Below are positions 632-7,213 of a stretch of DNA of 64,000 nt, piece by piece; the first letter of the stretch is position 1; each line of letters opens with the position of its first letter. The DNA comes from Candidatus Palauibacter australiensis (GTDB lineage Bacteria > Gemmatimonadota > Gemmatimonadetes > Palauibacterales > Palauibacteraceae). A program made the position numbers and the translations under genes. The stretch is taken from assembly GCA_026705295.1 (NCBI GenBank), contig JAPPBA010000078.1, positions 1-64,000 on the forward strand. The letters are read 5' to 3'. The notes beneath the pieces were generated by a model. That model had not been told where the DNA came from. It saw only the letters and a list, made by a program, of their open reading frames with translations, and did not search any database.

Positions 632-1120
632 ATGCACATATCGAACCACACGTCGAACCATCCTCCGACCTCCGCCCCGTGGCGCGCGATCCGCGGATCG
701 GTCTGGATGGCGGCCGTCGCGGTCATCCTCGGCGCCTCCAGTCTCGCAGGCCAGGAGGAGGGCGGCGAGGAGGCGGAGACCGAGGAGGCCGCCGCCGCGG
801 CCAACACGACCCAGGGTGTGTTCAGCGAGGAGCAGGCCACGCGCGGCGAAGACGTCTTCTGGAACATCTGCGCGGAATGTCACTTCGAGGAGGACTTCGG
901 GGGGCCGTTCATCCAGTCGTGGGTCGGGGCCTCCGTGAAGGACCTCGTGGATGAGATCGTGGCCACGATGCCGGAGGACAATCCGGGCGGGCTGCCCGCC
1001 GAGCAGTACGTCGATGTCGTCGCCTACATGTTCAAGATCAACGGCATGCCGACCGGCGAAGACGAACTGACCGCCGAAAACGTGGACGCCGTGGAGATCG
1101 AGGTCGACCTCGACCCCTGA
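632..1120 (+). CDS. Exported monohaem cytochrome c
   Basis: A 162-residue protein with a basic N-terminus and a hydrophobic signal segment at about residues 23-40 (VWMAAVAVILGASSLAG), then an acidic Ala/Glu linker. It has a single haem c site, CAECH (Cys80, Cys83, His84), and a Met in the C-terminal part (near KINGMPTGE) that could be the distal ligand. It should be a small periplasmic or membrane-tethered electron carrier. The start at 632 is preceded by an AGGGGAA-type ribosome site. The partner oxidoreductase is not adjacent. A PQQ enzyme with its own haem domain lies at 12.8-14.7 kb, but nothing links the two directly. Confidence 0.85.
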   Translation: MHISNHTSNHPPTSAPWRAIRGSVWMAAVAVILGASSLAGQEEGGEEAETEEAAAAANTTQGVFSEEQATRGEDVFWNICAECHFEEDFGGPFIQSWVGASVKDLVDEIVATMPEDNPGGLPAEQYVDVVAYMFKINGMPTGEDELTAENVDAVEIEVDLDP

Positions 1121-1205
1121 TTCCGTGACGGATTCTCCCTGGCCGAACCCGCGTCCGCGGACCCGGTAGCGAGCCCACGCGAGCGCGCTCTTCGCCAGCG
1201 AGCCC

Positions 1206-1217
1206 CCCAATATTGGG
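1206..1217. promoter_or_regulatory. 12-bp perfect palindrome upstream of the Cache-barrel gene
   Basis: CCCAATATTGGG is fully symmetrical and AT-rich at its centre, in otherwise very GC-rich DNA, 28 bases before the next start codon. It could be an operator or part of a promoter. I see no convincing -35/-10 pair around it, so the role is a guess. Confidence 0.3.
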
Positions 1218-1245
1218 TGCGACGCGCGCATTCCGGCGTTAGAGT

Positions 1246-3816
1246 ATGACCGTCATGCGAAACCGAACGTCTTCCGTGATGATCCTGGCGCTGCTGGGCC
1301 TGGCCGTGGTCGGGCTCCGGGCGCGTCCCGCCAACGCACAGGTGCCGAAGGTCACCGCCAGTGAGGTGGTGGACCGCGAGACCCTGAAGGGGTTCGTGAC
1401 CTGGGCGACGGCCGTCTCCGCCGCCATTACCGACATCAACGAGGGGTCCCGGCTCATCCAGGCCGTGAGGACGGAGGGCAGCGACTACAACGTGGGGAAC
1501 ATGTACCTGATCCTCATGACCCCCGATGGACAGGTGTTCATCCACGGCGAAGACCCTCACATCGATGGCACGAACGTCTCTGAGGTGGTGGACGAAAACG
1601 GGACCAAAGTCGTCCGGCAGATGCTTGACGCCGCGGCGGCCGGGGGCGGCTTCGTGGAGTGGTGCTGGGACGACCCGCAGGATCCGGGTGACTCCCGCTG
1701 CAAGGACAGCTACGCCCTTCAGTACCATTCCCAGGTGCTCGGAGCGGATCTGGTCATAGTCGGGGGGTACTACCAGAACCTTTCGAACGCCGGGCAGCCG
1801 CTCCCTCCCGTCCCGCATCCGGAGGTCACCGCCGCCGATGTGGTAGACCGCGAGACGCTGAGGCAGTTCGTGCATGGCTCTCTCGACTGGCTGCTCGAAC
1901 TCGTCGGGCAGGTCGGTTTCCAGCGCGCGACCGAGTGGAAGGCCTTGATGCGGGAGGAGGGCGGCCCGTTCAAGTCCGGCCCGATCTATCTCTTCGTCTT
2001 CACTCCCGAAGGTTATGTGATCTTCCACGGCGCGGACCCCTGGCGTGAAGGCCGTACGGCGATCGACAACACGGACTTCCGGGGGAGGCCGTTCGTAAGG
2101 GAAGTCATCGCCGTAGCCCAGGGGGGTGGAGGATTTGTCGAGTACTTCTGGGATGACCCGACGGTACAGGGGGATGAGGACACCGGAACGCCCAAGGTGA
2201 GTTACGCCGTCTCGTACAAGAGCGACCTGCCCATCTACCAAGGCGTCGAGTTCATCGTCGGCGCCGGATTCTATCGGAATTTCTCCACCGCCGAGGCGGA
2301 GATGGCGGCGGCCGACTGGCTCGAGCGGTTCGGCCGCTCGGTGGCGAGCCAGGCCATGGAGATGATCGGCGACCGCGTCTCGCACGCGGCCGGTGGACCG
2401 GACCAGGTGACGGTCGGCGGGCGCACGATCGACCTCGCGGCGCCGGGCGCGCGAGGCGGACCGTTCGGCGGCCTCAACGCCCTGGCGTCCGCGGCTTCCC
2501 CCGCGAGCCGGATGGCGCCGACGGCATTCCTCCCCTCGTCCGTGGGCGGACTCCTCGGTGAGACCTCCTTCCAGGTCTCCACCGGGCAGGATGCGGGGGG
2601 CGGCGGCGACTACTCGCTCTGGGGCGCGGGAGAATTGACGCGCTTCTCGGCCGGCGAGGGCGGTGGGTCGGGTCACGGCGAAATCGTCACCGCCGCGCTT
2701 GGCGCCGACTACAGGTTCGGATCGGTACTCGCCGGGCTCGCCGTGTCCCGCAGTCTCGGGTCGGGTGGATTCGACCTGGGACGTGCCGGAGAAGATGACG
2801 CCGGCGACGTGTCGACGAGACTGACCAGCGCCTTCCCCTACGCCCGGCTCGCACTCAGCGATCGCCTCTCCCTGTGGGGCGCACTCGGGTACGGGTTCGG
2901 CCGGCTGGACATCTCCGGGAGCGGAGAGCAGGAGCCTTCGAGCGACATCTCCATGCGCATGGTCGGACTGGGGGCGCAGGGTGAGCTTGTGCGGGCCGAC
3001 GATCCGGGAGACTTCAAGCTCGCGCTGCGGTCGGATGGCTTCGTCGCGCAGATGAACTCGGAGGAGGTCGATGGTCGGCACGAACTCACGACCGACGTGA
3101 GTCGCGTGCGCGTGATGTTCGATGCCTCGAGGGGATACACGCTCTCGTCCGGCGAGATGGTCCAGCCGAACCTGCGGGTCGGCATGAGACGCGACGGGGG
3201 CGACGTGGACACCGGCTTCGGGATGGAACTGGGAGTCGGTCTCGCGTTCCTCGACCTGGAGCGGGGCCTCACGGTCTCCGTGCACGGGCGCAAGCTCGTG
3301 GCGCACGAACAGAGCCACTACGAGGAGTGGGGGCTCGGCGGGTCGATCACGCTCAACCCGCAGGGGGCGGGACGCGGGCTGTCGCTCCGCGCGAGTCCCT
3401 CCTGGGGGTCGACGGCGAGCGGTCTGGCGCGGCTCTGGGCGCAGGGCGCGACCGGATTGACGCCGAACGCCTACGGCTACGGCCACGGCAGCCGCCGGCT
3501 TGATGCGGAGATCGGATACGGCGTCGACGCGCTGGCGGGCCGGGGCACCTTCACGCCGTACGCGAGACTGGTCCTGTCGGAGCAGCCGGGCGCGGGTCCG
3601 TCCGGCGCGGGCCAATTGGGCGCGGGCCCGTTCCAGGGTCCGCTGGCGCTGGTTCCGCTCCAGGGATCGGGGCAGAGCCTGTACGGCTACCATCTGGGCG
3701 GGCGTCTCAACGTCGGTTCGGGCCTCTGGCTGAACGTCGAGGGGGGCCGGAACGCCTACGGCGCCGCGTCGGGCCCGGCGAATAGCGTGACGCTCAACCT
3801 CGCCATGAACTGGTAG
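1246..3816 (+). CDS. Tandem Cache-like sensor domains fused to an autotransporter-type outer-membrane barrel
   Basis: An 856-residue protein with a signal peptide at residues 1-31. Two related modules follow, about 35-175 and 190-350. Each opens with VVDRETL, contains a (I/L)F(V)xTP(E/D)G segment ending in (F/I)HG, then a GGGFVE(W/Y) segment, and closes with a VGxxYxN strand. This is the look of single Cache domains. A linker WLERFGRSVASQ at about 355 resembles those that precede autotransporter barrels. From about 435 to the end there are alternating amphipathic strands, and the protein ends in Trp (NLAMNW), as outer-membrane barrels do. A Gly-Ala-Gly-Pro repeat near residue 785 (GAGPSGAGQLGAGPF) probably sits in a loop. 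A ligand-binding surface protein is likely. An alternative start is ATG 1255. Confidence 0.75.
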   Translation: MTVMRNRTSSVMILALLGLAVVGLRARPANAQVPKVTASEVVDRETLKGFVTWATAVSAAITDINEGSRLIQAVRTEGSDYNVGNMYLILMTPDGQVFIHGEDPHIDGTNVSEVVDENGTKVVRQMLDAAAAGGGFVEWCWDDPQDPGDSRCKDSYALQYHSQVLGADLVIVGGYYQNLSNAGQPLPPVPHPEVTAADVVDRETLRQFVHGSLDWLLELVGQVGFQRATEWKALMREEGGPFKSGPIYLFVFTPEGYVIFHGADPWREGRTAIDNTDFRGRPFVREVIAVAQGGGGFVEYFWDDPTVQGDEDTGTPKVSYAVSYKSDLPIYQGVEFIVGAGFYRNFSTAEAEMAAADWLERFGRSVASQAMEMIGDRVSHAAGGPDQVTVGGRTIDLAAPGARGGPFGGLNALASAASPASRMAPTAFLPSSVGGLLGETSFQVSTGQDAGGGGDYSLWGAGELTRFSAGEGGGSGHGEIVTAALGADYRFGSVLAGLAVSRSLGSGGFDLGRAGEDDAGDVSTRLTSAFPYARLALSDRLSLWGALGYGFGRLDISGSGEQEPSSDISMRMVGLGAQGELVRADDPGDFKLALRSDGFVAQMNSEEVDGRHELTTDVSRVRVMFDASRGYTLSSGEMVQPNLRVGMRRDGGDVDTGFGMELGVGLAFLDLERGLTVSVHGRKLVAHEQSHYEEWGLGGSITLNPQGAGRGLSLRASPSWGSTASGLARLWAQGATGLTPNAYGYGHGSRRLDAEIGYGVDALAGRGTFTPYARLVLSEQPGAGPSGAGQLGAGPFQGPLALVPLQGSGQSLYGYHLGGRLNVGSGLWLNVEGGRNAYGAASGPANSVTLNLAMNW

Positions 3817-3877
3817 GAGACGTGGCCAGGGCCGACCGCCCATCCCCGGGCGGCCGACCCCGCCGGTCGCCCGAGTC

Positions 3878-4424: not shown

Positions 4425-6197
4425 CTACGCCTGGGCTCTTCCCGCGCGGACGCGGCGGATGGCGGCGGCACCCTCGAGGAGGAGCCAGATCTCGAGGATG
4501 AAGATCGCGGCCCCGATCACGAGCAGCAACCAGTCGTTCGACCCGAAGTAGCGGTCGAGGTTGATGATCATGGCCCACGTCGTCATCAGGAGGAGGAACG
4601 ACATCGGGATCATCGTCACCCAGAAGGGGCGTCCCTTCCCCATCAGGAAGAGCGACACGATGAGGAGCGTGAGGCCGGCCAGGAGCTGGTTCGTGGTGCC
4701 GAACAGCGGCCAGATCATCATGCCGCCGGCGCCCCGGTCGACCGAGAGGGCGAGGAGCGCGCAACTGGCGACCGCGATCCCCGTCGCCACCCAGCGGTTC
4801 TGGATCGCCTTCACCTTGTACTCGACGCCGAGTTCGCTGATGATGTAGCGCTGCAGCCGGATCGCGGTATCCAGCGTCGTGGCGGCGAAGCTGATCACGA
4901 CGACCGACGCGAAGATCACGGCCACGCTCTCGGGAATCCCCAGGCCGCCCGCGAGCACGCCCACGCCGTTCACGAAAGCCGTCGTGGCGCCCGCGGTGGC
5001 CGCCTCGAAGCTCCCATAGTGCTGCTGCCAGAGCGCGAGGCCCTGCGTCGCGCCCACGTCGCGGCTGAGGTAGATGGCGAAGCCCGCCGTACACGCGATG
5101 ATCGACGTGACGGCAAGCGAGCCTTCGCCGATGGCGCCGCCGTAGCCCACGTAGCGCGCCTCCGCCTCATTCGCGAGCTGTTTCGATGAAGTACCGGACG
5201 CCACGAGGCCGTGGAAGCCGCTGATCGCGCCGCACGCGATGGTGATGAAGAGGAGCGGCAGCCAGCCCGGCGTGTCGGCGGGCAGATCCGTGTTCACCGT
5301 GGGCGCCACGACCTCCGGGTTCACCACGATCACGCCGAGGCTGATGATGCCGAGCGCGACGAAGAGCTGATGCCCGTTCACGTAGTCGCGCGGCTGCAGG
5401 AGCAGCCACACCGGCAGCACCGAGGCGACGAACGTGTACGCGAAGAGGATCGCGATCCATCCCACGCGCCGCCCATCCGCCGCCGCCGCCTCCCCCGCCG
5501 CGGCCGCATCCCCTCCCGCCGCGGCCATTTGCGCCTCGGTCGGGCTGAACCCGATGAAGTCGGGCAGCGTGAACGGCATGTCCTGCCCGAACCAGATCAG
5601 CACGTACAGCGTCGCCAGCGCCCCCAGCGACGGGACGAGGATCCCCGTCCCCGTCCGGTAGATGAGGAAGCCGACGATGAGCGCCACGACGAGCGACCCC
5701 CACACCGGGACCACGGCGCCGGGGTTGGCCATGAACAGGTTCGCGATGATGACGGCGAACACCGCATTCACCATCAGGAGCAGGAAGAAGATGATGAGGA
5801 GGAAGAGGACGCGGGCGCGCTGGCCGAGGATCGACTCGGTCAGCGTCCCGATCGAGCGGCCCTTGTGGCGGCTCGAGATCCACAGGGCGCTGAAGTCGTG
5901 CACCGCCCCCGCGAAAACCGTCCCGAGCACAACCCACAGGAAGGCCGGCAGCCAGCCCCAGATGACGGCGATCGCCGGGCCCACGATCGGCGCCGCCCCC
6001 GCCACCGACGTGAAGTGGTGCCCGAAGAGGACGTGCTTGTTCGTCGGCACGTAGTCGACGCCGTCCCGGAACTCGTGCGCCGGCGTGACGAAGTCCGGGT
6101 CGAGCTTGAAGACCTTGCCCGCGATGAAGCGCGAGTAGATGAGGACTCCCGTGAGGAAGGCCGACAGACCAATCACCAGCAGGACGATCGCGCTCAT
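4425..6197 (-). CDS. cstA: CstA-family carbon starvation transporter
   Basis: A 590-residue multi-spanning membrane protein with clear CstA signatures: an N-terminal helix (SAIVLLVIGLSAFLTG), FGHHFTSVAGAAPIVGPA, GAVHDFSALW, the SGTSSKQ region and FGTTNQLLAG. The family carries pyruvate or peptides across the inner membrane during nutrient limitation. It is shorter than E. coli CstA (about 700 residues). An Ala-rich insert near residue 235 (GGDAAAAGEAAAADG) lies in a loop. I chose ATG 6197 because GGAGGGGG precedes it, and it overlaps the stop of the ArsA-like gene by four bases (ATGA). That puts it third in an operon after a small CC protein and an ATPase. Confidence 0.93.
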   Translation of the reverse strand: MSAIVLLVIGLSAFLTGVLIYSRFIAGKVFKLDPDFVTPAHEFRDGVDYVPTNKHVLFGHHFTSVAGAAPIVGPAIAVIWGWLPAFLWVVLGTVFAGAVHDFSALWISSRHKGRSIGTLTESILGQRARVLFLLIIFFLLLMVNAVFAVIIANLFMANPGAVVPVWGSLVVALIVGFLIYRTGTGILVPSLGALATLYVLIWFGQDMPFTLPDFIGFSPTEAQMAAAGGDAAAAGEAAAADGRRVGWIAILFAYTFVASVLPVWLLLQPRDYVNGHQLFVALGIISLGVIVVNPEVVAPTVNTDLPADTPGWLPLLFITIACGAISGFHGLVASGTSSKQLANEAEARYVGYGGAIGEGSLAVTSIIACTAGFAIYLSRDVGATQGLALWQQHYGSFEAATAGATTAFVNGVGVLAGGLGIPESVAVIFASVVVISFAATTLDTAIRLQRYIISELGVEYKVKAIQNRWVATGIAVASCALLALSVDRGAGGMMIWPLFGTTNQLLAGLTLLIVSLFLMGKGRPFWVTMIPMSFLLLMTTWAMIINLDRYFGSNDWLLLVIGAAIFILEIWLLLEGAAAIRRVRAGRAQA

Positions 6198-7213
6198 CGG
6201 ACAACCCCCTCCGTAGTATCGAGTACGGTGGTATCGAGTACGGGAATCCGTCCAAGTGCGTCCACGCCCACGGGATCGGAGTCCTGGAGGTCGACGCGGA
6301 GGACGGGCCAATCTCCAAGAGACTGCGAGATCCTCGCAAGATAGGCGGCCTGGCGTTCGCGCCTGGCGGCGAGGAATGGGTCCTCCGCCGCGCCGCCTTC
6401 GCGCTCCGGGAGCACGAGGTTCACGACGACGGCTCCCACCGGGACATCGTGCTTCGCGAGGGCCTTGACCGCCTTCTCCGTCTCCCAGATCGGCAGGCGT
6501 TCGGGGATCACGACGAACACGAAGGCCGTCCGGCGGGGGTTGGTGAGGACCCGGCGCGCCGCCTCAAAGCGGTCCCGGCGTTCCTCGAGCGCCCGCAGGA
6601 GAGGGTCGTTATCGAGATCGTCCGCCTCGGGCCCCGCCACGTTCTTCCACATCCGCGAGAGGGCGCCCACCTTCCGCCGGCGCTTGATGAGCCCGCCGAT
6701 CCAGGTCGTCATCAGCTCCGGCAGGGAGAGCAGCCGCAGCGTCTGGCCGGTGGGCGCCGTGTCGAAGACGATCCGGTCGTAGGCGTCCCCTTCGGCCTCG
6801 AGGATGTGCGTGAAGCGGTCGAAGACGGCCGACTCCACGGCCCCGGGAGAGACCCGCGCGATGTCGATCTGCCGGTAGACCTCACCCAGGAGCCGCGGGG
6901 GCGCGGCCGACTCGACGCGCGACTTGACCGCCTCGATGTAGCGGTCCGCCTCCCGCTCCGGATCGACCTCCATGGCCCAGCAACCCTCGGCGACCTGCCG
7001 CGGCCGGTCCCCCAGCTTCGCCTGGAGTACGTCCCCGGTGGAGTGCGCCGGATCGGTGGACACGAGGAGGGTTCGCCGCCCCCGCGAGGCCATGTCCAGC
7101 GCGGCCACGGCGGCCATGGTCGTCTTCCCCACCCCGCCCTTGCCGCCGAAGAAGAGGACCGGCCGGTCCGGGAACGGCAGCGGGGCCCGCCGCGAATCCG
7201 CGTCGCTCAGCAA
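6194..7213 (-). CDS. ArsA-family P-loop ATPase linked to cstA
   Basis: A protein of about 339 residues with the deviant Walker A of the ArsA/GET3 class, GGKGGVGKTT (residues 23-32 from the TTG start), followed by STDPAHS (switch I) and FDTAPTGQTLRLL (switch II/Walker B). There is a single ATPase half, not the tandem ArsA. No arsenite genes are nearby. No ATG exists in the right place; TTG 7213 overlaps the last codons of the upstream CC gene by seven bases, and CTG 7216 or 7210 are alternatives. Its place between a CstA accessory-like protein and CstA suggests a role in assembling or controlling that transporter, which is inference. Confidence 0.85.
   Translation of the reverse strand: MLSDADSRRAPLPFPDRPVLFFGGKGGVGKTTMAAVAALDMASRGRRTLLVSTDPAHSTGDVLQAKLGDRPRQVAEGCWAMEVDPEREADRYIEAVKSRVESAAPPRLLGEVYRQIDIARVSPGAVESAVFDRFTHILEAEGDAYDRIVFDTAPTGQTLRLLSLPELMTTWIGGLIKRRRKVGALSRMWKNVAGPEADDLDNDPLLRALEERRDRFEAARRVLTNPRRTAFVFVVIPERLPIWETEKAVKALAKHDVPVGAVVVNLVLPEREGGAAEDPFLAARRERQAAYLARISQSLGDWPVLRVDLQDSDPVGVDALGRIPVLDTTVLDTTEGVVR

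What the first reader, a model, noticed from the sequence alone, without database searches (positions are those of the whole stretch)
1246..3816. Two Cache-like domains joined to an outer-membrane barrel
Cache domains normally sit in the periplasmic part of inner-membrane receptors. Here two of them follow a signal peptide and lead into an autotransporter-like linker and a C-terminal barrel ending in Trp. This could be a surface-exposed ligand-binding or scavenging protein rather than a classic receptor.
Basis: partly seen in the sequence, partly recalled or inferred. Interest (0 to 1): 0.6.

Follow-up and report, generated by a model that had tools for sequence, protein, structure and literature searches.

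The report
Carboxylate-sensor domains on autotransporter barrel
A bacterium related to sponge symbionts carries a gene that fuses two small-molecule-binding domains, normally found in chemotaxis receptors, to an outer-membrane barrel of the kind that displays proteins on the cell surface, so it probably holds a nutrient-binding module outside the cell instead of signalling inside it.

Summary
Window 1246-3816 (+) encodes 856 aa: signal peptide, two sCache_2 domains (Pfam 55.5 and 45 bits, cut-off 25), a long helix, a disordered linker and a C-terminal barrel ending in Trp. AlphaFold with 16 sequences models both Cache domains well. Foldseek's best matches are autotransporter beta-domains (EstA, BrkA, Hbp, NalP, EspP); Cache 4k08 also matches. 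Same-architecture relatives, and a sibling barrel in this genome, pass the Pfam Autotransporter cut-off. Cache 2 keeps all six carboxylate-pocket positions of PscD/4EXO in kind (Y248 F250 H261 Y300 W302 K317) and has the lowest dN/dS. The genome (95.5% complete) shows no chemoreceptor and no other sCache_2 domain.

Best reading: a type-Va-like autotransporter displaying a C2/C3-carboxylate-binding Cache pair. Surface display and ligand are inferred. Intact copies occur in 9 of 17 genomes of the genus (split in 3 more), one other Gemmatimonadota family and some Alphaproteobacteria. No held paper describes the combination.

Unexpected: in four related species the gene is cut exactly between Cache domains and barrel, at codons FYR, by a mobile element with a tyrosine integrase. 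Close integrase relatives insert in leucine-rich-repeat genes at PPELG (23 of 30 flanks).

The parts
1246..3816 (+). Cache-barrel gene, 856 aa
1246..1338 (+). Signal peptide, residues 1-31 (hydrophobic core, ANA-Q cleavage motif)
   Evidence: read from the sequence; A31 and Q32 invariant in 16 aligned sequences; no signal-peptide predictor was available
1342..1785 (+). Cache domain 1, residues 33-180 (sCache_2)
   Evidence: Pfam 55.5 bits; AF2 model; pocket positions Y87 I89 H100 W139 W141 K153
1813..2283 (+). Cache domain 2, residues 190-346 (sCache_2)
   Evidence: Pfam 45 bits; AF2 model; pocket positions Y248 F250 H261 Y300 W302 K317; lowest dN/dS of the protein, 0.07-0.16
2266..2280 (+). 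Attachment-site-like sequence GGATTCTATCGGAAT, empty here; the matching site (core TTCTACCGG) is occupied by an integrative element in four related species
2284..2610 (+). Long helix (residues 348-379) and disordered linker (381-454)
   Evidence: AF2; aligned in part with barrels that carry FN3, Calx-beta and cadherin-like passengers
2611..3813 (+). C-terminal outer-membrane beta-barrel, residues 456-856, ending VTLNLAMNW
   Evidence: homologous barrels over the PF03797 cut-off

Best explanation
The protein is a type-Va-like autotransporter. The signal peptide takes it across the inner membrane, the C-terminal barrel inserts in the outer membrane, and the two Cache domains are displayed as the passenger. 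Cache 2, and possibly Cache 1, binds a small carboxylate of the acetate/pyruvate/propionate class. With no transmembrane relay and no output domain it does not signal in the usual way; it most likely captures or concentrates the ligand (or a host-derived molecule carrying such a group) at the cell surface. Shown here: architecture, folds as predicted, conservation and purifying selection, pocket residues, absence of chemoreceptors. Inferred: translocation to the outside, ligand, purpose.
For: Two sCache_2 domains over cut-off. Model with Cache pair, helix and barrel; Foldseek best hits EstA 8.8e-9, BrkA 9.7e-9 (target TM 0.78), Hbp, NalP, EspP, and Cache 4k08 2.6e-5. Same-architecture relatives L066 and L016 hit PF03797 at 4.5e-7 and 2.9e-9, over cut-off; sibling barrel G000:C131 hits it at 2e-15 and is homologous to this barrel. 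The same barrel carries FN3, Calx-beta and cadherin-like/Ig passengers, typical surface modules. Pocket: the residues that hold the ligand in PscD (Y90 W92 H103 Y143 W145 K156; PMC5062169) and 4EXO (Y96 F98 H109 F148 W150 K161; PMC12415202) map to Y248 F250 H261 Y300 W302 K317; H261, W302, Y300 and K317 are invariant to Alphaproteobacteria. Cache 2 is the most constrained region. Closest NCBIfam matches are sensors MctS and CtpM. No MCP, no other sCache_2 in the genome. Omp85 assembly proteins present.
Against: The query barrel itself only touches OMP_b-brl (E 0.33) and not PF03797. The model has about 18 strands where type Va has 12, at low confidence after residue ~705, and ~75 disordered residues separate the helix from strand 1, so the usual helix-in-barrel arrangement is not seen. 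Overall pTM is 0.47. Cache 1 has Ile where the sandwiching aromatic should be, and loses FVEWCW in the alphaproteobacterial type. Neighbouring genes are not conserved outside the genus.
Confidence: 0.55

Rival explanations
1. Host adhesin: the Cache pair is displayed on the surface but binds a sponge or neighbour protein or glycan, and small-molecule binding is secondary or lost.
For: The same barrel family carries FN3, cadherin-like and Calx-beta passengers, which are adhesin-like. Many relatives come from sponge-named MAGs such as Rhopaloeides and the order is frequent in sponges (PMC10469786).
Against: The pocket of Cache 2 is intact and is among the most conserved parts, which adhesion alone would not need.
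Confidence: 0.2
2. The Cache domains stay in the periplasm and the barrel is a channel: a solute-binding domain tethered to its own outer-membrane pore, perhaps gating it.
For: The modelled barrel is larger than 12 strands and the linker is long and disordered. CstA, a pyruvate/proton symporter relative, lies two genes downstream throughout the genus, and a dicarboxylate symporter lies next door in L009.
Against: The best structural matches are autotransporter beta-domains, not porins; the helix-linker-barrel unit is shared with large repeat proteins that only make sense outside.
Confidence: 0.15
3. Contact or nutrient sensor: ligand binding at the surface is relayed inward through the barrel to an unknown inner-membrane partner.
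For: Cache domains are sensors in nearly all known cases; closest family models are MctS and CtpM.
Against: No conserved neighbouring regulator across families; no plug or signalling domain found in the protein; no MCP in the genome.
Confidence: 0.07

Closest known systems
sCache_2 sensor domains of chemoreceptors and kinases (PscD-SD, McpP, Adeh_3718 4k08, V. parahaemolyticus 4EXO, MctS, CtpM)
   Same: Sequence family over the curated cut-off, modelled fold, and all six short-carboxylate pocket positions in Cache 2
   Different: Two in tandem, no transmembrane anchor, no HAMP/MCP/kinase output; joined to an outer-membrane barrel
Type Va autotransporters, especially those with non-beta-helical passengers (EstA, 3kvn)
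   Same: Signal peptide, N-terminal folded passenger, C-terminal barrel with aromatic last residue, best Foldseek matches
   Different: Passenger is Cache; linker long and disordered; barrel about 400 residues and possibly more than 12 strands
Gemmatimonadota/Alphaproteobacteria proteins with the same barrel on FN3, Calx-beta or cadherin-like repeats
   Same: Homologous helix, linker and barrel
   Different: Passenger domains unrelated to Cache

Membership tests
sCache_2 (PF17200) | Match over curated cut-off | tested here: met
   55.5 and 45 bits against 25
sCache_2 (PF17200) | Cache fold | tested here: met
   AF2 Cache regions mostly pLDDT 83-93, Foldseek 4k08 2.6e-5, 4exo 3.2e-5
sCache_2 (PF17200) | Tyr/His/Lys carboxylate-contact residues (PMC5062169) | tested here: met
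   Y248 H261 K317 and Y87 H100 K153
Cache chemoreceptor or sensor kinase | Transmembrane anchor and cytoplasmic output domain | tested here: not met
   No output family found; barrel C-terminal half instead
Type Va autotransporter | Sec signal peptide | tested here: inconclusive
   Clear by eye and conserved A31-Q32; no predictor available
Type Va autotransporter | C-terminal outer-membrane barrel of autotransporter fold | tested here: met
   Foldseek best matches are all autotransporters; terminal Trp invariant
Type Va autotransporter | Exactly 12 strands | tested here: inconclusive
   Model shows about 18, low confidence after ~705
Type Va autotransporter | Alpha-helical linker leading into the barrel | tested here: inconclusive
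   Helix 348-379 present but ~75 disordered residues before strand 1
Type Va autotransporter | PF03797 match | tested here: inconclusive
   Not in the query; over cut-off in same-architecture relatives and in a homologous sibling barrel
Type Va autotransporter | Passenger reaches the cell surface | not testable with these tools
   Needs cells

The most novel reading that the evidence does not exclude
The gene is a hot spot for integrative elements that cut it exactly between passenger and barrel. Integration leaves a complete signal-peptide-plus-Cache protein with a new stop codon and a barrel half without signal peptide, so the element turns a surface-anchored binding protein into a free soluble one, and excision would restore it.
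Probability: 0.15. Interest if true: 0.75.

Novelty: new variant of a known kind. Interest (0 to 1): 0.5.

Why it matters
If right, Cache domains, the commonest extracytoplasmic sensors of prokaryotes, are also used as surface-displayed binding modules uncoupled from signalling, in uncultured symbiont lineages that lack chemoreceptors. It names a testable ligand class and a tractable soluble construct. The same gene also exposes a family of integrases that target surface-protein genes, which bears on how these bacteria vary their surfaces.

Tried and rejected
Single-sequence AlphaFold run gave mean pLDDT 32.8 and was discarded. The 939-aa antisense ORF 1024-3843 was rejected: the sense gene is the one conserved across species and under purifying selection. 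PHROGs gave nothing. Neighbourhood as a clue to function: cytochrome c, DinB and CstA are syntenic only within the genus, other families have other neighbours, so it is weak. Reading the split genes as separate two-gene systems was rejected: both halves end in the same core sequence, next to element ends and an integrase. The 'Gammaproteobacteria' titles of L006 and L012 were not taken at face value: the same contigs sit in Gemmatimonadota genomes.

Full report
What is there. Window 1246-3816 (+) is one open frame of 856 residues, present once in its genome. The order reads: signal peptide (1-31), Cache 1 (33-180), Cache 2 (190-346), helix (348-379), disordered linker (381-454), barrel (456-856). 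Pfam finds sCache_2 twice, each over the curated cut-off. PDB sequence relatives are chemoreceptor sensors. The two Cache domains are 36% identical, E 9e-33, which fits tandem duplication.

Structure. A single-sequence model failed. With 16 aligned sequences the Cache region reaches pLDDT mostly 83-93 and the first dozen barrel strands roughly 60-90; the last ~150 residues are weak and the overall pTM is 0.47. Foldseek against the PDB returns EstA, BrkA, Hbp, NalP, AaaA and EspP first, and the Cache sensors 4k08 and 4exo lower down. The strand count of about 18 in the model is not reliable.

Autotransporter link by sequence. The query barrel does not itself pass PF03797. Two proteins with the same Cache-barrel architecture do (L066 4.5e-7, L016 2.9e-9), and so does a homologous barrel elsewhere in this genome (2e-15; homology). 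The same barrel family ends proteins with FN3, Calx-beta and cadherin-like passengers, and part of the helix and linker aligns with them. It is therefore a module with exchangeable passengers, and surface display is the natural inference. It is not shown.

Ligand. In PscD propionate is held by Y90, H103, Y143 and K156 and sandwiched by W92 and W145 (PMC5062169); in 4EXO the positions are Y96, F98, H109, F148, W150, K161, and histidine rather than leucine at 109 goes with pyruvate rather than L-lactate (PMC12415202). By the HMMER alignments Cache 2 has Y248, F250, H261, Y300, W302, K317; Cache 1 has Y87, I89, H100, W139, W141, K153. The Cache 2 set is complete. H261, Y300, W302 and K317 are invariant in 16 sequences down to 31% identity. 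Cache 2 has the lowest dN/dS of all regions in every comparison, 0.07-0.16. The prediction is a C2/C3 carboxylate.

Context. The genome, 95.5% complete, has no MCP signalling domain and no sCache_2 other than these two; it has Omp85 proteins. CstA, related to the pyruvate/proton symporter, is a syntenic neighbour in the genus. This agrees with the ligand prediction but is weak.

Distribution. In the genus (Palauibacter by the named records) nine of 17 genomes hold the gene whole (one with an internal stop), three hold it split, five show no copy; 26 genomes of other genera in the order show none. One other Gemmatimonadota family has it in two genera, and some Alphaproteobacteria have a diverged form, with several paralogues in one genome. 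The tree separates the two types with full support; a second copy in one genome of the genus (G039) falls on the alphaproteobacterial side, which suggests transfer between phyla. The order is common in sponges (PMC10469786).

The split genes. In G033 the Cache half and the barrel half are 6.3 kb apart in otherwise conserved synteny. Between them lie a tyrosine integrase, a MobC/NikA-like protein, a relaxase and an Mrr-like nuclease. Both junctions carry TTCTACCGG, codons FYR at residues 343-345. G028, G035 and G086, the last from another family, show the same junctions with matching element ends on separate contigs. Uninterrupted relatives have one copy of the site. The window's site is empty and reads TTCTATCGG.

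Where its relatives insert. Integrases 76-95% identical to it occur in many copies in these lineages. Of 30 flanks examined, 23 contain leucine-rich-repeat coding sequence, commonly broken at PPELG, against 0 of 500 random 1-kb stretches of the window and 15 of 1000 of related loci. A GTTC-N5-GAA(C/T) core is visible in many. The searched papers did not describe this.

Known or new. Neither component is new. The pairing was in none of the papers found: a search for 'Cache domain' with 'autotransporter' gave one paper, which uses the two words for different proteins, and two surveys of autotransporters do not mention Cache. Only open-licence papers were searchable, and protein databases may already list the architecture. 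I rate it a new variant of a known kind.

Noticed in passing
L048 5298-11650 (G033); L049/L050 (G028); L051/L052 (G035); L095/L096 (G086): Integrative element with tyrosine integrase, relaxase and MobC inserted at FYR codons between the Cache domains and the barrel in four species of two families; G086, G033 and G035 share the attL end as far as it can be read.
   Followed up: yes
L110-L139; L145 6250-9088; L146 8295-11475: Related integrases, many copies per genome, insert in leucine-rich-repeat genes at PPELG codons (23 of 30 flanks against 0 of 500 and 15 of 1000 random stretches); short LRR fragments lie between divergent integrases. Could shuffle surface proteins.
   Followed up: partly
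G107:C1:2156846-2158129; G190:C2:440363-441361: The same barrel family matches inside open frames of 13,298 and 11,976 residues, possible giant surface proteins.
   Followed up: no
L066 4342-6588 (G039): Second Cache-barrel copy in a genome of this genus that groups with the alphaproteobacterial type; likely transfer between phyla.
   Followed up: partly
L006, L012: Public records titled Gammaproteobacteria whose contigs belong to Gemmatimonadota genomes in the genome search; the titles look wrong.
   Followed up: partly
window 4425-6311: CstA-family transporter (Pfam E 4e-142), nearest NCBIfam model pyruvate/proton symporter but below its cut-off; syntenic with the finding in the genus.
   Followed up: partly
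G401 (L013, L101): An alphaproteobacterial genome with four long Cache-barrel matches, further Cache-only matches and about nine other barrels of this family.
   Followed up: no
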